The notes beneath the pieces were generated by a model. That model did no database searches and was not told the origin of the DNA. It worked only from the letters and a program-made list of their open reading frames with translations. A stretch of 55,476 bases of DNA from contig NZ_NAPS01000001.1 in assembly GCF_004323185.1 (NCBI RefSeq), positions 1,206,788 to 1,262,263 of the forward strand, in the 5' to 3' direction. Source of the DNA: Westiellopsis prolifica IICB1 (GTDB taxonomy: Bacteria > Cyanobacteriota > Cyanobacteriia > Cyanobacteriales > Nostocaceae). Every line of letters starts with the position of its first letter. Within the stretch, counting starts at the first letter, position 1. The translations under genes were made by a program, and so were the position numbers. Of this stretch, positions 24,756-36,443 are shown in pieces.

Positions 24756-26342
24756 CTAATGACTACCTTTTTGTATATGTTGCTTTGGTAGGGAAACTGT
24801 AACTTTAGTACCTTGATCGGGTTGACTATCTAAACTAATCCTACCACCATGTAATTCTACGCAAGCTTTTGTAATTGCTAACCCTAAACCTGTTCCAGGA
24901 AGTGTGTCAACATTACTTCCACGATAAAAAGGTTCAAACAGGTTGGTTTGATCTTCTATTGGTATACCTATACCTTGGTCTTGAATAAAAAATATTATTT
25001 CAGATTCTTTGCCAATCAAATAGAATTCTATATTGCCTCCTTTTGGAGAATATTTAATAGCATTGGAAATTAAATTACTAAATATCAACCGTAAAAGTCC
25101 TTGATCGCCCCAGAAGCCTTTATGATTTCCAGTACTCTGAAAAATGAATTCATGGTGTTCGCTAACTAATTGCTGTTGTTCAGTGATTAAGCTAGAGAAA
25201 AAATGCTCTAAATCAAGGGGAATTGTTTTAAATTTGGTCTTGTTGAGTTCAAATTGATTCATGACTAGCATGTCATCTATCAATTTGGACATGTGTCTTG
25301 CTTTCTGCTCGATAATATGCAAAAACTTGTGTTTTTTTAATTCCTCAAGATGGTCGCCATATTGCTTGAGTGTAGATGCAGCAGCTAAAATTGAAGCCAG
25401 TGGTGTACGATACTCGTGGGAAATAGTCGTGATAATTTGAGATTTAAAGGCATTGAGTTCTTTTTCTTTTTCTAGAGCAGCTTGAGTTTTTGTGAGTAAT
25501 TCTGCTTGTTGAATTGCGATCGCTAGTTGTACAGACACTTCACAAAGTATCTCTAGTTCGTCAGATTGCCATTCTCGTTTTCCTGTACACTGATGAGCAA
25601 TCAAAAAACCCCAAGGTTTTGATATTGATTGTTGCTCACTCAAAGTAATGGGAACTATTAGATTTGCTTTATTATTTAATAGCTCTAGGGGGTTGAGGTT
25701 GCAATCATGGGAGCCAGCCCAATAACATAATAAAGAATTATTTTGATCTGTTGTATTGTTTTGAGCAATTTGTTCTGAGTCTGTTTCTGGAGAAGACTGA
25801 CATACTATCACGCGATCGCACTTGAGCATTTGTTGCACTTCTCTGACAGCCGTGTATAAAATTTCTTGTAAATCAAGAGACTGGCGAATTCGTAGCAACA
25901 TCGTAGCAATCAACCGCTGTCGTTCCTGAGTCTTTTGTAACTGAGTTCGCAGATATAATTGCTTGATCACATTACGAACTGCTAGTTGCAAAATATCCGG
26001 TTTCAGGTGTTGCTTAACTAAATAATCTTGGACACCCTTTTTCATCGCTTCCACAGCAATCTCTTCGTCACCCCGTCCAGTCAGCATAATCACGGGTACG
26101 GAAGAACCAAAGGTTTTCTGTCTAAGCTTATCTAGAAATTCGATTCCGCTCATATCTGGCAAGCAAAAATCCAGCAGAATCAAATCACAAGGCATATTTT
26201 GGCACAAGCCAAGTGCAACTTCTGCTGAATCGGCTTCCAGAATTTGGTAATAATGATGAGGATCTTTCAAAAGAAAGCGGCGATAGATTTTCCGATCCGT
26301 TGCACAATCATCAATGATGAGCAGCTTCCAGGCATTCGGCAT
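24756..26342 (-). CDS. REC-GAF-histidine kinase (hybrid)
   Basis: 528 aa. An N-terminal receiver (about residues 5-122) has acidic DD at 11-12, phospho-acceptor D in LLDFCLPDMSG, and K in YLVKQHLKP. A GAF domain (about 150-285) follows. HisKA (about 300-365) has the H-box TTISHEYRTPLASI, and HATPase (about 410-520) has NLISNAIKYSP, DQGIGIP and GTGLGLAI. All catalytic boxes are intact. The protein can receive a phosphate on its receiver and has its own kinase. It is the last of three signalling genes in line (phytochrome, Rcp-like regulator, this kinase) and is likely part of that relay. Confidence 0.9.
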   Translation of the reverse strand: MPNAWKLLIIDDCATDRKIYRRFLLKDPHHYYQILEADSAEVALGLCQNMPCDLILLDFCLPDMSGIEFLDKLRQKTFGSSVPVIMLTGRGDEEIAVEAMKKGVQDYLVKQHLKPDILQLAVRNVIKQLYLRTQLQKTQERQRLIATMLLRIRQSLDLQEILYTAVREVQQMLKCDRVIVCQSSPETDSEQIAQNNTTDQNNSLLCYWAGSHDCNLNPLELLNNKANLIVPITLSEQQSISKPWGFLIAHQCTGKREWQSDELEILCEVSVQLAIAIQQAELLTKTQAALEKEKELNAFKSQIITTISHEYRTPLASILAAASTLKQYGDHLEELKKHKFLHIIEQKARHMSKLIDDMLVMNQFELNKTKFKTIPLDLEHFFSSLITEQQQLVSEHHEFIFQSTGNHKGFWGDQGLLRLIFSNLISNAIKYSPKGGNIEFYLIGKESEIIFFIQDQGIGIPIEDQTNLFEPFYRGSNVDTLPGTGLGLAITKACVELHGGRISLDSQPDQGTKVTVSLPKQHIQKGSH

Positions 26343-26455: not shown

Positions 26456-26899
26456 TCACCCAGAAATTGGTGAAATATTGACTTGTAACCAATAATCGAC
26501 AAACGCTTGAATGGTTTTTTGCAGTTCTTGGACATCCATTGGCTTGACAAGATAGCCATTTGCACCCTTTTGATAACAAAATTCAATATCCTTGGGGTTG
26601 GATGAAGTTGTGAAGATAACTATGGGAATTTCTCTAAAAGTTTTATCTTGCTTAAGTTGTTCTAGGATGTCACGACCATCAATTCCTGGTAGATTCAGAT
26701 CTAGCAGAATCACCGAAGGTCGGGATAATCCATCGATTTTTTTCCCTTCTTGGTAAAGGTAGTCTAAAACTTCATCCCCACTACTACAACGATGGATGGG
26801 GTTTTGGACAGCCATTCGCCGCATCAAGCGTTGGAGAATTCGGAAATCCTCGTTGCTGTCCTCAACAACCAATAGTGGTTCGCTAAGTTTTGTTGCCAT
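26456..26899 (-). CDS. Rcp-like single-domain response regulator
   Basis: 147-aa stand-alone receiver. It has acidic residues in LLVVEDSNEDF, the phospho-acceptor in ILLDLNLPGIDG, Thr/Ser in IVIFTTSSNP and Lys in GYLVKPMD. The C-terminal extension QAFVDYWLQV is typical of cyanobacterial Rcp1-type regulators that serve phytochromes. It starts 60 bp after the phytochrome stop and ends 113 bp before the hybrid kinase, all on the same strand. It has no output domain, so it probably passes phosphate on or acts by protein contact. Confidence 0.9.
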   Translation of the reverse strand: MATKLSEPLLVVEDSNEDFRILQRLMRRMAVQNPIHRCSSGDEVLDYLYQEGKKIDGLSRPSVILLDLNLPGIDGRDILEQLKQDKTFREIPIVIFTTSSNPKDIEFCYQKGANGYLVKPMDVQELQKTIQAFVDYWLQVNISPISG

Positions 26900-26959
26900 T
26901 AGTTCATCTATCTGAGCAAATTATGTTTATTAAAAAGTTTTGTAATATATCTTAACTTA

Positions 26960-29239
26960 TCATAGTGTCAAATAAAATGTTGATCCTTCGCCTGGGGTAG
27001 ATTCAACCCAAATTTGACCACCGTGACGTTCAATTATTTTTTTGGCGATCGCCAGTCCAGCACCTGTTCCACCACCATATTTTTCTTGAGTATGCAGTCG
27101 TTTGAACAGTCTGAATATGGTTTGGTGGTGATGGACTGGAATTCCAATACCGTTATCCCGTACGTAAAAAGTGATTGGAAACTGGGAATCAACAGAAGAC
27201 ACACTCAACTCTGGAGGACTAGACACAGAGATTTGTCGATCAGCATCCCCCTGTCCTCCAATTCCTCCCTCCAAATAACCAATCTCCACCCATTTTTCTG
27301 CTTTATCATTATATTTGAAAGCATTAGTGATTAGGTTACTAAAGACTTCGTTCACAAGAACTGGGTCACACTGAATTGTTGGTAGAGGTCTGGGAATACG
27401 AATTTCGAGATTATGTTGTTGATGACTAGCATCAAAGACGTTGATCACTTGCTCAAGCAATTCGTTTAAATTTACTGCTTGTAAATGTAGTGCTGCTTGC
27501 CCTAATTGCGATAGTCGTAGTAAACCATTAATTAGGGTTTCCATGCGTACCGACAAGGAAATAACTGTCTGTAAGTAATCTGTAGCATCTTCATCTAGGA
27601 CGGATGCATAGTCTTCAAGGAGAATTATTGAGTAATTATATATACCCCGTAAGGGTTCCTTGAGATCATGAGAAGCTGCATAAGCAAAAGAAGCTAATTC
27701 GCGGTTACTGGTTTCTAACTCTTGATTGATTTTGGCTAATTCTTCTGCTTTTTTAAGAACAATTCCCACGATCGCATTTCGCAGACTCAAAGCACTATCA
27801 AGTTCGCATTTTTGCCAAGGTAGAGATGTTAATCTTACAAGTTCTTGCCATTTCTCAAAGGACTTTCGGGGACAAAGGGTGATAGTACCATCTGAGTTAA
27901 CTTGAATCGAATCGTTGGGATTACCTGCCCAGTTTACCGTGCGGATTACTTCGGGGCGAAACCAGAGTATATAATAATGTCGCAATTTAGAAATCCGCAA
28001 TAGCAACAAACCACTAGCGGTATCTTTAAATGTCTCAGCCTCTGGGTAAAGCTTGGGTAGAGAATCAGTATAAAATATATTATCTTTCACCTGAGCATCT
28101 GCCCAGGTAATTAGCGATCGCACATCTTCGGTATCTGGTGTTCTTCCCAGCAGATAAATTTTACCATCCAAACAAACCGCCGCCCCTGTTGCACCTACAA
28201 GACCTAGTAACCGGGGTTCAGGATGGATTAACGCATCTCTAAAATTATCTGCTTGAGAAATAGATTCGACAACACCAGACCGCAGAGATTCCAATCTAAT
28301 TTTATAGTCTACTTCTTCTTGAATGACTTTATTCGCCAACTCGGATGATACGATTTGTCCTAAAAATTCACAACCAGCCCGGATTTCATAAGGGACATAT
28401 CTAGGAGTTTGATGGTGACAGGAAATTAATCCCCACAGGTTTCCATTTTTAATTAGGGGAATGACCATCAAAGCTGCTACACCCATATTTTGATGATATT
28501 GCACACAACATGGATCAACACTCCGCAGCACAGACAGACTTAGATCGAGGAGAGTATCATCTGTTGTAGGAATTAATTCTACAGGTTGGGCGTTGATACA
28601 TGGTACAATCCGCAATGGATTGCGTGTATATAAATCTTTAGCTCCTCGTGGTATATCTGTAGCTGGATAGTGGAGTCCCAAATAGGGCGATAACTCTTGT
28701 GTTTTGACTTCAGCAATCACTACCCCCGCGCCTTGATGGTCAAATTGGTAAACCATCACCCGATCAAATTCTGTAATATTGCGGATTTGTTGGGCTGCAA
28801 TTTGTAAGAAATCTATCAAGTTATTTGTACGTTTGAGTTTGGCGATCGCTCCTTTGATTAAGGTGTGAATGTTCAAGAAATTGACTTGAACTTGCGATTG
28901 TTTTGGTTCTAGCTCTAAAATGATCGTGTTTTCTACTCGATGCACAAAACCATCAAAGTCTCGCTCACCTTCATTTGTGCGGACTGATAGCTTCAGGTAA
29001 TTAATAGTGTCAATTTCGTCTGTTGGAAGTTGAGCGATCGCTTCTAAACACAAAGCATCGAGTAAATAACTGAGAGGTTGACCAAGCAACTCTTGTGGTC
29101 GTTTACCCAAATAGTCTTGGGTATTACTGCTAACTTGTAATATTTCCAATTGTGTACTTAGTGCTAAAAGTACACCATGGGGCTGGATCGAGCCAGGGTT
29201 AAAAATGAGATCGTCGTGACTAGTTAATAACAACTCCAA
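26960..29239 (-). CDS. cyanobacterial phytochrome (PAS-GAF-PHY-histidine kinase)
   Basis: 759-aa red/far-red photoreceptor kinase. PAS (about residues 10-110, PGSIQPHGVLL) is followed by GAF (about 125-310) with PATDIPRGAKDLYTRNPLRI and a chromophore site reading SVDPCCVQYHQNMGV, PHY (about 320-500), HisKA (H-box AASHDLKEPLRG) and HATPase (NLITNAFKYN, DNGIGIP, GGTGAGLAI). Cys244 is at the usual phycocyanobilin-binding place. The next residue, normally His, is Cys245. No N-terminal Cys of the biliverdin-binding type is present. A 30-residue insertion of low complexity sits inside the ATPase domain. The start is TTG 29239; no ATG fits, and an in-frame stop lies five codons upstream. Confidence 0.92.
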   Translation of the reverse strand: MELLLTSHDDLIFNPGSIQPHGVLLALSTQLEILQVSSNTQDYLGKRPQELLGQPLSYLLDALCLEAIAQLPTDEIDTINYLKLSVRTNEGERDFDGFVHRVENTIILELEPKQSQVQVNFLNIHTLIKGAIAKLKRTNNLIDFLQIAAQQIRNITEFDRVMVYQFDHQGAGVVIAEVKTQELSPYLGLHYPATDIPRGAKDLYTRNPLRIVPCINAQPVELIPTTDDTLLDLSLSVLRSVDPCCVQYHQNMGVAALMVIPLIKNGNLWGLISCHHQTPRYVPYEIRAGCEFLGQIVSSELANKVIQEEVDYKIRLESLRSGVVESISQADNFRDALIHPEPRLLGLVGATGAAVCLDGKIYLLGRTPDTEDVRSLITWADAQVKDNIFYTDSLPKLYPEAETFKDTASGLLLLRISKLRHYYILWFRPEVIRTVNWAGNPNDSIQVNSDGTITLCPRKSFEKWQELVRLTSLPWQKCELDSALSLRNAIVGIVLKKAEELAKINQELETSNRELASFAYAASHDLKEPLRGIYNYSIILLEDYASVLDEDATDYLQTVISLSVRMETLINGLLRLSQLGQAALHLQAVNLNELLEQVINVFDASHQQHNLEIRIPRPLPTIQCDPVLVNEVFSNLITNAFKYNDKAEKWVEIGYLEGGIGGQGDADRQISVSSPPELSVSSVDSQFPITFYVRDNGIGIPVHHHQTIFRLFKRLHTQEKYGGGTGAGLAIAKKIIERHGGQIWVESTPGEGSTFYLTL

Positions 29240-29533: not shown

Positions 29534-29640
29534 GGAGCAGTGTAAGTCAGTGAATTTTGGTGAAAAGAAGAGATTTACACGATTGAAGTCAGATTTTTGA
29601 GTTAAAAATCTGTTTTATGGCTTGTGAAGCTAATCTATAA

Positions 29641-29808
29641 CTCTAAAACCTAATTTAGAACTCCGAAACCTAATTTAGAACTCCAAAATCTAATTTAGAA
29701 CTCCGAAACTTGATTTAGGAGTCCTAAACCTAATTTAGAACTCCGAAACTTGATTTAGGAGTTTAAAACCTAATTTAGAACTCCGAAACTTGATTTAGGA
29801 GTTCTAAA
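29641..29808. repeat. 20-bp tandem repeat with 40-bp higher-order unit
   Basis: About eight 20-bp units. The first three are CTCCGAAACCTAATTTAGAA-like; later ones alternate with CTTGATTTAGGAGT units to make a 40-bp composite that is partly palindromic. A short GTCGGTTTTGAACCGAC hairpin follows at about 29829-29845. No gene is seen between 29240 and 29910. Confidence 0.85.
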
Positions 29809-29910: not shown

Positions 29911-30861
29911 TTAGCCTAAAGTCCCTAAATACCTTTTCAAATCAAAAAACTTGATCAACTGTTCCAAAGTCGCATCCTCAGAGGTAGGAGTGTTTGCTTC
30001 AATTTTTTCGATAGTTTCTGGATTCAAAAATTTAAATACTTCCTGAATCACAACTGGAATACTATCAACTGGCAAACCTTCTATTTCATAAGTATAGCGA
30101 GCGAGTCTATCTTTAGCAAAATTGACTTGAAATCTAGCTCGTTTCAGTAAACGCTGTCTAATATGATCATGAAGTTCTTGATTAACTAAATTAAAGTCGG
30201 TTTGCAAAATAATTGGAATCAAATCAATATTTTCTTCCAAAAATAGAAGACTTCCTTCTGCGTTGAAAGCTTCAATTCCTTCGATTCCCAGTGTCCCAAT
30301 ATCAGCAAGAGCAGTAATTCGACTGACAATGGATAAATTTTTCTCAGAATTGTAAAGGTCAGCTTGATAAATTGAACCCCTGATAGGATCGTATAAGCAA
30401 ATTGTTGCTTCAATTGCTTCTTTAATAATTCCTAAATCAGAATTTGTAAAAATTCCCAGACTGTTAGGATCAGATTTGGATAAATCTTCATTCAAATTAT
30501 GAATGTAATTCATCAGTTTGTGAATTGTTGCTGCTTCACTCACACCAATTTCTCTTTTGCGAGCAGTATGAGGTTCGCTCTGGGGAACAAACTCTTGTAC
30601 TAAATCGTGAGACAAAGTACAAATTTCTAATAAAAGTTCCATCCGGTTGATATATTCTAGATTGTTTTGCCAATAAGGTTTAATTACTTGAAAAATTTGA
30701 TTTGCTCGGCGTTCTACTCCTTGAACATGCTGACAATTATGATAATAAAGCTGTTTTTGTTCAGCTTCTTGTTTCATTTCTTGGAGTGCAAAATCTCTGA
30801 CTCTCGCAACTGTTTTGGAAAATTTTTGGAAAGAATGATTGTGATGATTCGTCTGTTTCAT
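29911..30861 (-). CDS. HD-domain metal-dependent phosphohydrolase
   Basis: 316 aa. The N-terminal half is an HD-superfamily hydrolase: LYYHNCQHVQGVE (H41, H45), CTLSHDLVQ (the HD pair H85-D86) and a late ALADIGTLG (D187) complete the H...HD...D metal set. The YHN-x-x-H spelling resembles the start of class I cyclic nucleotide phosphodiesterases, but the second PDE signature is not seen, so the substrate is open. The C-terminal half is helical and unassigned. I use ATG 30861; an in-frame TTG lies two codons upstream. The gene follows the MscS-cNMP channel gene by 14 bp and should be in its operon. Confidence 0.78.
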   Translation of the reverse strand: MKQTNHHNHSFQKFSKTVARVRDFALQEMKQEAEQKQLYYHNCQHVQGVERRANQIFQVIKPYWQNNLEYINRMELLLEICTLSHDLVQEFVPQSEPHTARKREIGVSEAATIHKLMNYIHNLNEDLSKSDPNSLGIFTNSDLGIIKEAIEATICLYDPIRGSIYQADLYNSEKNLSIVSRITALADIGTLGIEGIEAFNAEGSLLFLEENIDLIPIILQTDFNLVNQELHDHIRQRLLKRARFQVNFAKDRLARYTYEIEGLPVDSIPVVIQEVFKFLNPETIEKIEANTPTSEDATLEQLIKFFDLKRYLGTLG

Positions 30862-30875
30862 GGTCAAGATTGATT

Positions 30876-32360
30876 TTAAATGCCAAAAATAGCTTGAATG
30901 CGTTTACGGATTTGGGTAAATGGAGTTTCGTTCGGAGCATTAGCAGCAATTTTGATTCCCAAACGTTCTAATGTTTCTTGACGTTTAGATAATTCAACAG
31001 AGATTTTATCTGCTAAATCTGGTTGTTTTTCCAAAAGACTTTGTAAATTCTCCCTATCTACCACAAACAAAACAGTTGGTTCTAAAGTACGTAGGGTAGC
31101 AGTGCGGGGTGTCCCCATCAGCAAAGACATTTCTCCAATAAATTCCCCAGGATGTCGAGTAGCAACTTGTTTATTAATAGATTCAACAAAAACTTCCACT
31201 GCACCAGACAAAATAATATAGAAACAATCTCCTGGCTCATTTTCTCGACAGATAATTTCATCAGCTTCTAAGACTCGTTTATAACCACGTAAAATTATAT
31301 GACGTAATTCTGTATCACTACACTTTTCAAAATAACTGACTTGCCGTAATAAATTTCTTAGTAGTGGAATATTAGTAGTTTTTTGAGAAGCTAGCTGAGA
31401 TTTTTCGTGATTTAAGACTGTGCTGACAGAAGAATCATTAGCTAATTCTTCACCTGTGAATTTTTGTGACCAAGAACCCATTTGTTTGAAGTTATCAATA
31501 TAAATCCTTCTTTGAGCAATGGGACGATCAACTCCGCGATCGCGCAATTCTTCTTCAATAAAAAAGTATAATGAACTTGTAATTTCATCCTTCTTTTGAT
31601 GGTCATTTATCCAGACTAACAATTCAAAATCCATTCCTTCTCGAAAGCCTTTAAAGTGAACTTCAGGACAAGGTGATGGTAGTACATCAAGTTCCCGACG
31701 AGCAGCAGCCAAAAGTGACTCAGCAACTACGAGGGGATCGCTTTCATCAGGAACATCAATAGGAACATGAATTCTAACTTTTGGATCTTTATAAGTCCAA
31801 TTAATTACCTTGTTTTCCAAGAAAGTCTTATTAGGAACAATCACAAACACACCATCAATAGTTTTAATGATTGTCGAACGGATTGAAATATTTTCCACAA
31901 CTCCCGAAAGATCATCAATTTGAATAAAGTCTCCCACTTTAATTGATTGCTCAAACAAAAGAGTGATACCGCTAATAAAGTTACTAGCAAGATCCTGAAG
32001 TCCAATACCAAAACCAATACCAATGGCTCCTGCAAAAATAGTTAAAGAACTGAGGCTGATACCAACAGTTTGCAGAACAACTAAAAATGCCAAAATTGTG
32101 AGAGTATAGCTCAAAAGAGCAGATAGAGCTTCGAGACTACCGCGCTCTTGGACAAAGCGAGCTAAAAATAAACGTTTGATTAGCTCTTTAATTAAACGAG
32201 CAATCAAAAAAGCGATGATAAGTGAAAAAATCAGTTCGAGAATAAACTTTAAAGAAACCTCTTTGTTTCCTAAAATAAATAGCTTGGTTGTCCACAAGCT
32301 AGATAACTCAATCCATAGTTTTTGTATTTGTGAAGTCAGCCAATTTATTGTTCCTATCAT
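30876..32360 (-). CDS. MscS-type channel with C-terminal cyclic-nucleotide-binding domain
   Basis: 494 aa. Membrane helices at about residues 36-56, 78-98 and the pore helix 103-135 (SLTIFAGAIGIGFGIGLQDL) are followed by the MscS beta domain (VGDFIQIDDLSGVVENISIR) and the alpha/beta vestibule to about 295. A cyclic-nucleotide-binding domain fills about 343-465; its phosphate cassette is G409-E410-MSLLMGTP-R419-T420-A421, with both ligand-contacting residues (Glu and Arg) kept. It should therefore be a mechanosensitive-type channel gated or tuned by cAMP or cGMP. It is divergent from an adenylate cyclase gene 459 bp away and followed by an HD hydrolase gene. Confidence 0.92.
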   Translation of the reverse strand: MIGTINWLTSQIQKLWIELSSLWTTKLFILGNKEVSLKFILELIFSLIIAFLIARLIKELIKRLFLARFVQERGSLEALSALLSYTLTILAFLVVLQTVGISLSSLTIFAGAIGIGFGIGLQDLASNFISGITLLFEQSIKVGDFIQIDDLSGVVENISIRSTIIKTIDGVFVIVPNKTFLENKVINWTYKDPKVRIHVPIDVPDESDPLVVAESLLAAARRELDVLPSPCPEVHFKGFREGMDFELLVWINDHQKKDEITSSLYFFIEEELRDRGVDRPIAQRRIYIDNFKQMGSWSQKFTGEELANDSSVSTVLNHEKSQLASQKTTNIPLLRNLLRQVSYFEKCSDTELRHIILRGYKRVLEADEIICRENEPGDCFYIILSGAVEVFVESINKQVATRHPGEFIGEMSLLMGTPRTATLRTLEPTVLFVVDRENLQSLLEKQPDLADKISVELSKRQETLERLGIKIAANAPNETPFTQIRKRIQAIFGI

Positions 32361-32556
32361 GAGTGATTAAATATTTCCACTAGCCATCAAACACCTAAGT
32401 AATCAATTTAGTTTTTTGACTTAATTTTTAATAATTTTAATAAAAAATACTTTTTCAAACGATTTTCATTACTGATTTTATCTTTACTAAGTTTAAAAAT
32501 ATGATAACATCAACATAATTTTGACATACAGTTTATAGTAAAATATCAAGCAATAT

Positions 32557-32700
32557 AGGACTCATATTTGATTTCTGAAATACACGTAGGGTGCGTTACG
32601 CCAAAGGCTAACGCACCAGTTAAGAATTTAGGTGCGTTAGGCTACGCCATAACACACCCTACAGATACTTAGATTTTTTCATAAATCAAATCGGACTCCT
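32557..32700. mobile_element. MITE with AGGACTC/GAGTCCT-like ends
   Basis: The left end AGGACTCATATTTGATTT matches the complement of the right end AAATCAAATCGGACTCCT, imperfectly. ATAT flanks both sides as a possible 4-bp duplication. The interior carries GTAGGGTGCGTTACG...AACACACCCTAC, a well-known cyanobacterial repeat. The remaining divergent region (32361-32556 and 32701-32819) is AT-rich and must hold the promoters of the channel operon and the cyclase, but no convincing consensus is seen. Confidence 0.65.
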
Positions 32701-32819
32701 ATATAAGATTGATATTTATTTTTGAACCGAACTCAGTACACTTCCTGTTAAGAGTTCCCTGAAGAAAGATAACACCAGTTACGAAACGAAAATATACCTC
32801 AAACCCTTATCAATGACAA

Positions 32820-35800
32820 ATGAGAGCCGAATCTTCTAATTTTTCTTCGAGTTTAAATCTAGAACAACTTGTATTAGAAATTTCCGATCTCAATCAGGAG
32901 TTAGAACAAGTCAAGCAAGAGAAAGCAGAACTAGAAGCTCTAGTACAGACAATTACAGAACACTCTGATGTCGTAGCGAAAGAACTACAACAGAAAGCAG
33001 AACAAGCAAAGCGTGAAAGCGAAGATCGATTTCAAGTCATTGCGGAAGCAACTCCCGCGACAGTTATCATTTCGCAGCTAGCTAGTGGGAAAATTTTGTA
33101 TGCAAATACCGCAGCTAGCTCAATGTTAGATTTACCGAAGGAAGAATTGCTGAATCGTCAAACATTAGACTTTTACTATCAAGCTGGCGATCGCGAAAAA
33201 TTACTAAATATTTTCCGCAAACATGGTAGTCTGAGAAACTACGAAGTCCAGTGGAAAAAAGCTAATGGTACAAGCTTTTGGGCAGCCATATCTCTGCAAT
33301 CGTTTGTTTTTAATGGCTCAGAAGCTTTGCTGGGTACAGTTCTAGATATAACTAAACGCAAACAAGCAGAAGTCGATCGCATTCGTTTCACCCAACAACT
33401 AAAGGAAAAAAATGCCCAATTACAGCGTCTCAACAAACTCAAAGATGAATTTTTGATCAACACCTCCAATCAATTGTCTACTCCCCTGGAAGGGTTGGTG
33501 AATACCGCTAAGTCAATGTTAGAGGGAGGGATGGGTGAGGTATCTCCATCACAACGAAAAAGTCTGCAAAATCTTACCCAGAGTGGGTATCAACTTCTCA
33601 ACCGTATCAACAATATTCGTGAATTTTCCAAACTCAGACACGGTGATATTAAGTTACAACTGCAATCAGTGGATTTACACCAAATTGCTGAGACAGTGTT
33701 GGAATCGATGCGACCTCTGATTGATCAGAAAAATTTGGAATTGCTGAATAGTATTCCCGTCAAAAGCACAAGCGCTTATGCTGATCCGGTTCGCCTGCAA
33801 CAAATTTTACAAATTCTTGTTGATAATGCCATTGAATTTACCCCAACAGGTCAAATAGAAATCTCTATATCTGCACTTGAAGTTGAAGATCCTCAGAATA
33901 CATCACACATTGCTATAAGTGTTTATGATACAGGTAAAGGAATTGCTGAAGATGAATTAACAGAAATTTCTGAATTATTTCAGCAAGCAGAGCATTTAGC
34001 AACTCGCCAAGCCGGAAGTAAGGGTTTGGGATTGAGTATTATCAAAGCTTTGGTGGAGTTGCATGGAGGCAAAATTACTATAGAATCTACGGTAGGGGTA
34101 GGTACTCGTTTAACCTTTACTTTGCCTAAGAACATATCGCTTATTCCCAGTGGAGCGATCGCCCCATCTAATCATATTCCAGGCTCAACTCCCAGCCTCC
34201 CAACTAGAAACGCCGTATCTTTTCAAACTGCCAAAAAAACACGTCCTGTGAAAACCGCTGTTGCAACCGTCAACAAAACACAGCAACAGAATCAGCGTAC
34301 CCGAAATAAGTTTATACGAGGACTGAGTAAAATTCCACTGCGAGTGATTCTGATTGTTCCTTTTGTGGTGCAAGTGGTGGGAGCAGTTGGTTTAGTGGGT
34401 TATATTTCATTTAAAAATGGACAAGAGGCTGTTGACGATCTAGCTACTCAGTTGATGAGTGAAATTACTGCTCGCATTGAACAGAATTTACGAACTTATT
34501 TGGAAACTCCACATCAAATTAATCAAAGCAATGAGAATGCGATTAAATTAGGGTTAATAAATACACAAAATTTGCAACCTTGGGAGAAATATCTTTGGCA
34601 GCAAGTACAGTCATATCCCTACATTAATTTTATTAAATTTACAAATAAAAATGGACAAGAGCGAACAGGGGAAAAGCTGGAAAATGGTACTTTATTAATT
34701 AATGCCATAGACAAATTTACGAACTTTGATTTTTATTCTTACAATACGAATACGACAGGCGATCGCACAACAGTAGCAGCCATATTCAAAGGTTTTGATA
34801 CTAGAAAAGGAGCCTGGTACATAGATGCTGGTAAGGCAGGTAAACCAACTTGGAGTTCAGTTTATATCTCACTTTTAGAACCAGTATTACTAATTAGCGC
34901 TTCCCAACCTGTGTATGATTCAACAGGAAAACAATTACAAGGAGTATTGAATACTTCCCTACGACTTAATAGTATTGGTCGATTCTTAAATAGTCTCAAA
35001 ATCGGGAAATCTGGACAAGCCTTTATTGTCGAACATGATGGAACACTACTAGCAACTTCTACCAAAGAAAAACCATTTCGTACTCAAGGAAATGTCAGAA
35101 AACGATTTAAAGCCGTAGATAGTAACGACTCAGTCACTAAAACTACAGCTAGATATTTAGCTACCCATTTTCGAGACTTTAATCAAATTAAAAATTCACA
35201 AAAACTCAATATTGAAATAGAGAACAAACAGCAATATATAAAAGTAATGCCTTTTCAAGATAATAAAGGATTACATTGGCTGATTGTGGTTGTTGTTCCT
35301 GAAACCGACTTCATGGCACAAATTAATACCAACAACCAGACTACAATTGTGTTATGTATTGCAACTTTAATAGTGGCAATTATTATTGGTATTTTCACAT
35401 CTCGCTGGGTGACAGAGCCACTTGTCCGGCTTAATTTTGCAGCCAAAGATATTGCTAAAGGAGAATGGGATAAAACCGTTGATATTGAACGTGCTGATGA
35501 AGTTGGAGAACTTGCCAAGACGTTTAATTATATGGCTGGACAACTGAAAAAATCCTTTGAAACCCTAGAAAATCAAAATAATGCCATTGTCCGTTTCTTT
35601 CCCCATGAATATCTCAAATTTTTGCAAAAGAAAAGCGTGGTGAATGTCCAGTTAGGGGATCACGTGAGCAAAGAAATGGCGGTGATGTTCTCCGATATTC
35701 GCTCCTTTACAACTATTTCGGAGAGTATGACACCCCAAGAGAATTTTGATTTTGTTAACGCCTATCTCAGGCGGGTTTCTCCAGAAATTCGCAATCATAA

Positions 35801-36443
35801 CGGTATGATTGTGAAATATTTGGGTGATGGGATGATGGCAATTTTCCCTAACAGTGCAGATGATGCAGTCCAAGCAGGAATCACCAAACTGCGACGAGTT
35901 CATGAGTATAACCAAGAGCGAGCAAACAAAGGTTATGCACCCCTGCAAATCGGTATTGGTATCCATGTTGGTCATATGATGGTGGGAATGGTGGGAGAAG
36001 AAAACCGGATGCAAGGCGATGCTTTTTCAGATAATGTCAACCTTACGGCACGTTTAGAAGGTTTAACCAAGTTTTACGGCGTGTCTATGTTGATTTCTGA
36101 ACAAGTCTTGGAAAAATTGAGCGATCCCAGTCAATATCAAATTCGATTTTTAGACCGAGCAATAGTTAAAGGTAGAAAAGAAGCGATCGCAGTCTATGAA
36201 GTCATGGACGGTGAAACAGAAGAAATTAAAGCCTTGAAGTTTCAAACACAATCAGATTTTGAACAAGGACTAGAATATTACCGTCGTCGCCAATTTCCCG
36301 AAGCTCAAAGATACTTTGAACAAGTTTTAGCAGTCAATCTTTCAGATAAAACAGCAGCACTTTACCTAGAGCGAGTTAATCAATTAATGGAACAAGGTGC
36401 GCCGGAAAACTGGAATGGTGTTTGGACATTCAGCGAGAAATAA
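32820..36443 (+). CDS. PAS-pseudo-histidine kinase-Cache-HAMP-adenylate cyclase
   Basis: 1207 aa. Coiled coil (10-75), PAS (70-180), HisKA-like (203-268), HATPase (320-437), linker, TM (507-530), large periplasmic Cache-like sensor (535-835), TM (842-864), HAMP (865-918), class III cyclase (950-1125) and a TPR-like tail (1143-1190). The H-box reads TSNQLSTPL, so the acceptor His is Asn217, whereas the ATP-binding boxes VDNAIEF, DTGKGI and KGLGLSI are kept. In the cyclase, metal ligands D959 and D1003 (KYLGDG), base-selecting K999 and D1071, and catalytic N1074 and R1078 are all present, so it should make cAMP. The kinase module and cyclase both face the cytoplasm, on either side of the sensor. 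ATG 32820 is the only good start. Confidence 0.92.
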   Translation: MRAESSNFSSSLNLEQLVLEISDLNQELEQVKQEKAELEALVQTITEHSDVVAKELQQKAEQAKRESEDRFQVIAEATPATVIISQLASGKILYANTAASSMLDLPKEELLNRQTLDFYYQAGDREKLLNIFRKHGSLRNYEVQWKKANGTSFWAAISLQSFVFNGSEALLGTVLDITKRKQAEVDRIRFTQQLKEKNAQLQRLNKLKDEFLINTSNQLSTPLEGLVNTAKSMLEGGMGEVSPSQRKSLQNLTQSGYQLLNRINNIREFSKLRHGDIKLQLQSVDLHQIAETVLESMRPLIDQKNLELLNSIPVKSTSAYADPVRLQQILQILVDNAIEFTPTGQIEISISALEVEDPQNTSHIAISVYDTGKGIAEDELTEISELFQQAEHLATRQAGSKGLGLSIIKALVELHGGKITIESTVGVGTRLTFTLPKNISLIPSGAIAPSNHIPGSTPSLPTRNAVSFQTAKKTRPVKTAVATVNKTQQQNQRTRNKFIRGLSKIPLRVILIVPFVVQVVGAVGLVGYISFKNGQEAVDDLATQLMSEITARIEQNLRTYLETPHQINQSNENAIKLGLINTQNLQPWEKYLWQQVQSYPYINFIKFTNKNGQERTGEKLENGTLLINAIDKFTNFDFYSYNTNTTGDRTTVAAIFKGFDTRKGAWYIDAGKAGKPTWSSVYISLLEPVLLISASQPVYDSTGKQLQGVLNTSLRLNSIGRFLNSLKIGKSGQAFIVEHDGTLLATSTKEKPFRTQGNVRKRFKAVDSNDSVTKTTARYLATHFRDFNQIKNSQKLNIEIENKQQYIKVMPFQDNKGLHWLIVVVVPETDFMAQINTNNQTTIVLCIATLIVAIIIGIFTSRWVTEPLVRLNFAAKDIAKGEWDKTVDIERADEVGELAKTFNYMAGQLKKSFETLENQNNAIVRFFPHEYLKFLQKKSVVNVQLGDHVSKEMAVMFSDIRSFTTISESMTPQENFDFVNAYLRRVSPEIRNHNGMIVKYLGDGMMAIFPNSADDAVQAGITKLRRVHEYNQERANKGYAPLQIGIGIHVGHMMVGMVGEENRMQGDAFSDNVNLTARLEGLTKFYGVSMLISEQVLEKLSDPSQYQIRFLDRAIVKGRKEAIAVYEVMDGETEEIKALKFQTQSDFEQGLEYYRRRQFPEAQRYFEQVLAVNLSDKTAALYLERVNQLMEQGAPENWNGVWTFSEK

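What the first reader, a model, noticed from the sequence alone, without database searches (positions are those of the whole stretch)
29911..36443. Possible local cAMP circuit: cyclase, cNMP-binding MscS channel and HD hydrolase
A 1207-aa membrane adenylate cyclase is divergent from an operon encoding an MscS channel with an intact cNMP cassette (Glu410, Arg419) and an HD hydrolase with a full H...HD...D set and a PDE-like YHN-x-x-H start. Maker, reader and possible eraser of a cyclic nucleotide lie side by side. That would link a periplasmic Cache signal to ion or osmolyte flux. Domain content is seen; the functional link is inference.
Basis: partly seen in the sequence, partly recalled or inferred. 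Interest (0 to 1): 0.75.

Follow-up and report, generated by a model that had tools for sequence, protein, structure and literature searches.

The report
Paired cyclase and nucleotide-gated MscS channel
Next to each other in this cyanobacterium lie a sensor enzyme predicted to make cyclic AMP, a membrane channel predicted to bind it, and a possible enzyme to remove it; related bacteria keep such channels beside cyclases even when the sensor differs, which suggests a dedicated signal-to-ion-flux circuit.

Summary
The three genes are real. The cyclase is a K/D (adenylate-type) class III enzyme, divergent from a channel gene and an HD-like gene 14 nt apart. The channel is an MscS protein with an intact cNMP cassette (E410, R419). 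The HD-like protein keeps H43/H47/H87-D88/D189 but matches no Pfam family over cut-off.

The grouping goes beyond close relatives. In the window's channel clade 8 of 10 other loci have a class III cyclase within 3 kb and 7 of 10 the HD gene; in the next identity band (46-55%) 1 of 46 has a cyclase. The divergent order recurs in another family (G024). Partner cyclases share one catalytic type but three sensors (PAS-kinase-like-Cache-HAMP, receiver, CHASE2). A second group of channels sits beside CHASE2 cyclases of the Cya2 (guanylate) kind in 20 of 70 genomes, 10 genera. So maker and reader form a recurrent pair.

The eraser role stays open: HD clade A is linked to cyclase or channel in 13 of 19 loci, clade B in 0 of 18, and no member hits the class I phosphodiesterase model. 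In the window's family the channel was found only in 3 of 4 genomes of its own genus (plus one distant channel). Binding, gating and hydrolysis are untested.

The parts
29911..30867 (-). HD-like putative metal-dependent phosphohydrolase (316-318 aa), second gene of the channel operon; ligand set H43, H47, H87-D88, D189
   Evidence: weak PF01966 in 5 of 37 family members; profile match to a YqeK-like HD ORF, probability 64%
30876..32360 (-). MscS-family channel with C-terminal cNMP-binding domain (bCNG type), 494 aa
31026..31277 (-). cNMP-binding domain of the channel (residues 362-445), phosphate-binding cassette with E410 and R419
32361..32819 (.). 459-nt divergent intergenic region between channel operon and cyclase
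   Evidence: no CRP-like site with up to 2 mismatches here; 5 promoter-like matches against 2.3 +- 1.4 in shuffles
32820..36443 (+). 1207-aa membrane class III adenylate-type cyclase: PAS, degenerate histidine-kinase-like module, dCache, HAMP, catalytic domain, weak TPR tail
33441..34133 (+). histidine-kinase-like module of the cyclase (residues 208-438); H-box His replaced by Asn, ATP-binding boxes kept
34440..35087 (+). dCache_1 sensor domain (residues 541-756), predicted periplasmic
35670..36188 (+). class III cyclase catalytic domain (residues 951-1123), K/D substrate-specifying pair

Best explanation
A dedicated cyclic-nucleotide-to-membrane module. A ligand seen by the Cache domain, combined with cytoplasmic input to the PAS and kinase-like ATP-binding module, sets the activity of the cyclase. 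The cyclase makes cAMP close to the membrane. cAMP binds the cassette on the cytoplasmic C-terminus of the MscS-type channel and changes its opening, so that ions or osmolytes flow. The HD protein, made from the channel's operon, most likely ends the signal by hydrolysing cAMP or its product. Shown: gene order, domains, intact residues, recurrent linkage of cyclase and channel, sensor swapping around one catalytic type. Inferred: cAMP as product and ligand, gating, direction of flux, and everything about the HD protein beyond its conserved metal-ligand pattern.
For: Channel clade of the window (SH-like support 0.999): cyclase within 3 kb in 8 of 10 other loci against 0.11 expected from cyclase counts, while the 46-55% identity band has 1 of 46 (Fisher 3e-7, not corrected for relatedness). 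Two of the ten, G002 and G003, came in through the HD search; without them it is 6 of 8. The two exceptions keep the HD gene beside the channel (18 nt and 2.4 kb); one has its cyclase about 8 kb away (G226), in the other the nearest of this type is elsewhere (G181). The partner cyclases share K/D residues and a catalytic domain 66-97% identical to the window's but have three sensor architectures. Three genomes of one genus hold two channel copies of this clade: in G106 and G064 one sits by the receiver-type and one by the CHASE2-type cyclase; in G181 only the CHASE2 pair has its cyclase nearby. A separate group of channels pairs with Cya2-like cyclases in 20 of 70 genomes, 10 genera. The window genome has only 3 class III cyclases by PF00211 in 7.3 Mb, and this channel holds its best cNMP_binding match. 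HD clade A lies beside cyclase or channel in 13 of 19 loci, three of these beside a different, GAF-PAS cyclase (catalytic domain 34-35% identical). In the window's genus G001 lacks both HD gene and channel, as expected if they travel together.
Against: No binding, gating or hydrolysis data. HD clade B (18 of 38 rows) has 0 of 18 cyclase or channel links (two of these loci have a contig end within 5 kb). HD genes occur without the channel in four same-family genomes. The closest full-length cyclase outside the genus (G087, 58%) is not near its channel or HD gene. Of 17 short-frame cyclases of this catalytic type (at least 62% identical) that I picked from the list, 5 lie within 5 kb of a channel or HD gene, 3 about 8-9 kb away (one only from an HD fragment), and 9 do not; 7 of those 9 genomes have no HD match and no channel at E 1e-70, so the cyclase also works without this channel. 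The HD gene is patchy: 40 of 291 genomes of the order, 9 of 386 of a phylum sample, one of these the weak YqeK-like match. The AlphaFold model of the HD protein was unusable (pLDDT 44.8). The cassette residue after R419 is Thr in the cyclase-linked channels of both groups, so it does not tell cAMP from cGMP.
Confidence: 0.55

Rival explanations
1. Cyclase and channel are a true pair, but the HD protein is not a cyclic-nucleotide phosphodiesterase; it acts on another phosphorylated nucleotide or metabolite and shares the operon for another reason, for example as a salvage or stress enzyme.
For: In HD clade B 17 of 18 rows lie beside a GT9 gene (Pfam on one example each of GT9 and IspD), with no cyclase or channel linked; no PDEase_I Pfam match in 37 members; the only profile relative found is YqeK-like; HDxxQ is invariant where class I enzymes have HDxxH (recalled); four same-family genomes keep the HD gene without the channel.
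Against: Clade A, the window's, is linked to two different kinds of adenylate-type cyclase and to the channel.
Confidence: 0.35
2. The channel answers mainly to membrane tension; the cNMP domain is a modest modulator or structural, and the neighbourhood reflects co-inherited signalling genes such as the che cluster.
For: Titles in a reference list describe bCNG channels with mechanosensitive behaviour and one, Ss-bCNGa, that gates by tension (I recall that it is from Synechocystis; one search shows it cited for cyanobacteria). The genes sit in or next to a che cluster (CheA, CheB, CheW, CheR, MCP) in several relatives.
Against: E410 and R419 are kept in 90 of 90 channels; cyclase pairing recurs in loci where I saw no che genes near by (window, L135-L137, second channel group; their neighbours were not all searched by Pfam).
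Confidence: 0.25
3. The adjacency is a chance or hitch-hiking arrangement inside a signalling-gene-rich region.
For: The window stretch is rich in sensor genes (phytochrome, response regulators); some relatives carry 30-50 cyclases.
Against: Observed links exceed density-based expectation at genus level, and the 46-55% channel band, whose genomes mostly carry 20-40 cyclases, shows 1 of 46.
Confidence: 0.05

Closest known systems
bCNG channels (MscS-superfamily channels with a cNMP-binding domain; Caldwell 2010, Malcolm 2012: only titles seen, in the reference list passages)
   Same: MscS channel part followed by a cNMP-binding domain with intact cassette
   Different: Here the channel is genetically tied to one type of cyclase and to an HD gene; Caldwell 2010 is not held, so its ligand data could not be read
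Cya2 of Synechocystis (CHASE2 guanylyl cyclase; passages of PMC5995499 and PMC4284465)
   Same: Class III catalytic fold; best PDB match of the window domain (2w01); CHASE2 cyclases like Cya2 pair with the second channel group
   Different: The window cyclase has K where Cya2 has E488, the residue whose change to K gives Cya2 adenylate cyclase activity, and a Cache plus kinase-like sensor instead of CHASE2
SthK and MloK1 cyclic-nucleotide-gated potassium channels
   Same: Bacterial channel with C-terminal cNMP-binding domain (PDB matches)
   Different: Their pore is of the voltage-gated-like tetrameric type (recalled); this one is MscS-type
Class I cyclic-nucleotide phosphodiesterases (PDEase_I) and HD superfamily
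   Same: H-x3-H ... HD ... D pattern (class I pattern recalled)
   Different: HDxxQ not HDxxH, N of YHN not conserved, no PDEase_I Pfam match

Membership tests
bCNG (MscS + cNMP-binding domain) | MscS channel domain and downstream cNMP_binding domain in one chain | tested here: met
bCNG (MscS + cNMP-binding domain) | Cassette Glu and Arg that hold the nucleotide | tested here: met
   E410 and R419, 90 of 90 aligned channels, window included
bCNG (MscS + cNMP-binding domain) | Gating by cyclic nucleotide | not testable with these tools
   needs binding and patch-clamp data
Class III adenylate cyclase | Two metal Asp, transition-state Asn and Arg | tested here: met
   FSDIRSFT, LGDG, VNLTARLE kept in the window and three full-length relatives; roles recalled
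Class III adenylate cyclase | Lys and Asp/Thr at the substrate-specifying positions | tested here: met
   K999 and D1067; K position checked against the E of Cya2 and the K of 6fht and PMC5995499 passages; D position assigned from recall
Sensor histidine kinase (N-terminal part of the cyclase) | Phospho-acceptor His in the H-box | tested here: not met
   FLINTSN: Asn in 4 of 4, the window and three relatives
HD superfamily phosphohydrolase | H...HD...D ligand set | tested here: met
   H47, H87, D88, D189 in 38 of 38
HD superfamily phosphohydrolase | Match to an HD family model over cut-off, or HD fold | tested here: inconclusive
   PF01966 in 5 of 37 at E up to 0.1, best 0.0045; hhalign 64% to a YqeK-like ORF; model pLDDT 44.8
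Class I phosphodiesterase (PDEase_I, PF00233) | Pfam PDEase_I match | tested here: not met
   none among 37 members at E up to 0.1
Class I phosphodiesterase (PDEase_I, PF00233) | HDxxH signature (recalled) | tested here: not met
   HDxxQ in 38 of 38

The most novel reading that the evidence does not exclude
Cyanobacteria own a modular family of private nucleotide-to-channel circuits: one clade of MscS-type channels is driven by adenylate-type cyclases with exchangeable sensors (Cache, receiver, CHASE2), another group by Cya2-type guanylate cyclases, and in the first clade a new family of HD enzymes closes the loop as cyclic-nucleotide phosphodiesterase. The second group would be a long-missing effector of cGMP in cyanobacteria.
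Probability: 0.3. Interest if true: 0.78.

Novelty: new variant of a known kind. Interest (0 to 1): 0.6.

Why it matters
A review says that few functions of CRP and few targets of cGMP are known in cyanobacteria, and names SbtB as another cAMP binder (PMC10117731, passages read). Recurrent linkage names a concrete candidate effector, says which cyclase may feed which channel, and gives a matched pair (K/D with the window's channel clade, E/G with the second group) that predicts cAMP for one and cGMP for the other. If true it ties outside signals and, in relatives, a chemotaxis-like cluster directly to ion or osmolyte flux without transcription.

Tried and rejected
Viral relatives of the HD protein: none confirmed. 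PDB profile search: none at E up to 5. CRP-like operator TGTGAN6TCACA in the intergenic region: none with up to 2 mismatches; 23 matches in the window against 29.6 by chance. A working histidine kinase feeding the cyclase: rejected, no acceptor His. Chance adjacency: disfavoured. Literature: in nine searches of the open library no listed title or start of abstract reports this linkage; I read passages of four papers (PMC4560390, PMC13312541, PMC10117731, PMC4284465) and of PMC5995499, none whole. Subscription papers are not held, so this is not proof that it is unpublished.

Limits: ORFs in relatives come from a simple longest-ORF script. Flanked channel loci outside the HD set are 80 that I chose from the listed rows (list cut short). 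L211 gave no channel ORF over 440 aa and is not in the tree but is among the 31 loci. The 46-55% and 30-46% groups are identity bands to the window protein, not strict clades. One search uses 72 channel places in 70 genomes picked from the listed rows and 75 cyclase places; lower-scoring rows were dropped. 'Cya2-like' there means similar to the L191 cyclase at E 1e-150; the E/G pair was read in 7 loci only and CHASE2 confirmed by Pfam in 6 of those 7 (L193 not scanned). The HD tree leaves out four short ORFs (L061, L063, L073, L074); alignment A1 also leaves out L057, which holds masked letters. SH-like support is 1.0 for the HD split and 0.999 for the window's channel clade. Seven of the 19 clade A loci and two of the 18 clade B loci have less than 5 kb held on one side. 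P values ignore relatedness except for the genus-level count.

Full report
What is there. The window comes from a 7.3-Mb genome; the one named relative found is Fischerella sp. PCC 9431 (L034, HD protein 82% identical). At 32820-36443 (+) lies a 1207-aa class III cyclase; divergent from it, 459 nt away, an MscS-type channel (30876-32360, -) and, 14 nt after the channel's stop, an HD-like gene (probable start 30861, stop 29911).

The cyclase has PAS, HisKA, HATPase, dCache, HAMP, Guanylate_cyc and a weak TPR tail. The H-box reads FLINTSN: the acceptor His is Asn in 4 of 4 full-length sequences, the window and three relatives; the ATP-binding boxes are kept in three and worn in the fourth (L106). 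So the kinase-like part is more likely an ATP-binding regulatory module than a kinase (inference). The catalytic domain keeps the metal, Asn and Arg motifs and a K/D pair. Its best PDB match is Cya2, a guanylyl cyclase with E at the K position (2w01); the E488K variant of Cya2 is an adenylate cyclase (PMC5995499, passages read). Hence adenylate type.

The channel has MS_channel and cNMP_binding domains; its cNMP domain matches PKG, PKA, SthK and MloK1 chains in the PDB, and E410 and R419 are invariant in 90 of 90 aligned channels.

The HD-like protein matches no Pfam family over cut-off. A family of 38 sequences keeps H43 (37 of 38), H47, H87, D88, Q91 and D189 (38 of 38). HD membership is weakly supported by PF01966 in 5 of 37 members and by a 64% profile match that lines up H43, H47 and H87-D88 with a YqeK-like ORF ('YqeK-like' is my reading of that ORF). 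It is not a class I phosphodiesterase by Pfam.

Conservation. The HD gene is in 5 of 39 genomes of the relatives sample, 40 of 291 of the order and 9 of 386 of a phylum sample, one of these the weak YqeK-like match. In 42 genomes with a match, 11 have a class III cyclase within 5 kb, against 0.56 expected from each genome's cyclase count. By genus it is 5 of 18. All three genes lie together in the window, G003, G002 (HD cut by the contig end), G024, G106 and G064, three genera; G024 repeats the divergent order. G205 has cyclase and HD with only a C-terminal piece of the channel. G226 has all three within about 14 kb. In the window's genus G001 has neither HD gene nor channel, and four other same-family genomes with the HD gene have no channel at E 1e-70.

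From the channel's side: 90 channels, the window included, were aligned and a tree built. In the band of at least 55% identity to the window, which is a clade (support 0.999), 8 of 10 have a cyclase within 3 kb and 7 of 10 the HD gene; without G002 and G003, which came in through the HD search, 6 of 8 and 5 of 8. In the 46-55% band 1 of 46 has a cyclase and 1 of 46 the HD gene. In the 30-46% band 8 of 33 rows (7 loci) have a cyclase and none the HD gene. Those 7 cyclases have E and G at the specifying positions (7 of 7), CHASE2 by Pfam in 6 of 6 scanned, and the one searched against the PDB matches Cya2 at 287 bits. Extending by coordinates, 20 of 70 genomes with such a channel, 10 genera, have a cyclase of this kind within 5 kb upstream, co-directional in 18 genomes and divergent in 2.

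The partners of the window's channel clade carry one K/D catalytic type with three sensors: Cache type (window genus), receiver type (G024, G106, G064) and CHASE2 type (second channel copies in G064, G106, G181; Pfam 3 of 3). Catalytic type follows the channel group and not the sensor: CHASE2 occurs with K/D beside the window's clade and with E/G beside the second group. This is the strongest sign that the product of the cyclase, not its input, is what the neighbour needs.

Against: of 17 short-frame cyclases of this catalytic type picked, 9 have no channel or HD gene near them, 7 of these in genomes where neither was found; the 58% full-length relative in G087 is also alone. So the cyclase type is not bound to the channel everywhere; the channel of this clade is bound to the cyclase.

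Surroundings in relatives: CheA-, CheB-, CheW-, CheR- and MCP-type genes lie beside these genes in several loci, and an Ion_trans channel beside the HD gene in one genus. There the receiver-cyclase would be the output of a chemotaxis-like pathway (inference).

HD tree (split support 1.0): clade A, 19 loci, 13 linked to cyclase or channel within 5 kb, three of these to a GAF-PAS cyclase of another kind (Pfam on two); clade B, 18 rows, none linked, 17 of 18 beside a GT9-type gene and mostly an IspD gene. So the eraser idea fits clade A only and is untested.

Judgement. Observation confirmed; maker-reader pairing supported; eraser plausible, about one in three. Known kinds of parts in a linkage that no title or start of abstract listed in nine open-library searches describes.

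Noticed in passing
29630-29808: Tandem array of a 20/40-nt unit (CTAATTTAGAACTCCGAAAC type, 8.4 copies) between the phytochrome gene and the HD gene.
   Followed up: no
26456-29239: Phytochrome histidine kinase (PAS, GAF, PHY, HisKA, HATPase) followed by what reads as a single-domain response regulator, then a hybrid kinase at 24756-26342; next to the module, link untested.
   Followed up: no
32586-32665: Inverted repeat of the GGTGCGTTA...TAACACACC type in the divergent intergenic region, read by eye; looks like a common cyanobacterial repeat.
   Followed up: no
L037:10431-11366: A voltage-gated-like Ion_trans channel gene lies between the HD gene and the receiver-cyclase; its cluster also appears in L038, L039 and L040 of the same genus.
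   Followed up: partly
L136:10622-11764 and L191:3551-4264: DUF928 genes lie upstream of the CHASE2 cyclase beside both channel groups although the catalytic domains differ.
   Followed up: partly
L046:10567-12777: A SulP-type sulfate permease with STAS and a cNMP-binding domain lies between the HD gene and the channel.
   Followed up: no
L045:8612-10652: Tandem duplicate of the HD gene; the nearest cyclase of the window's catalytic type starts about 9 kb away.
   Followed up: no
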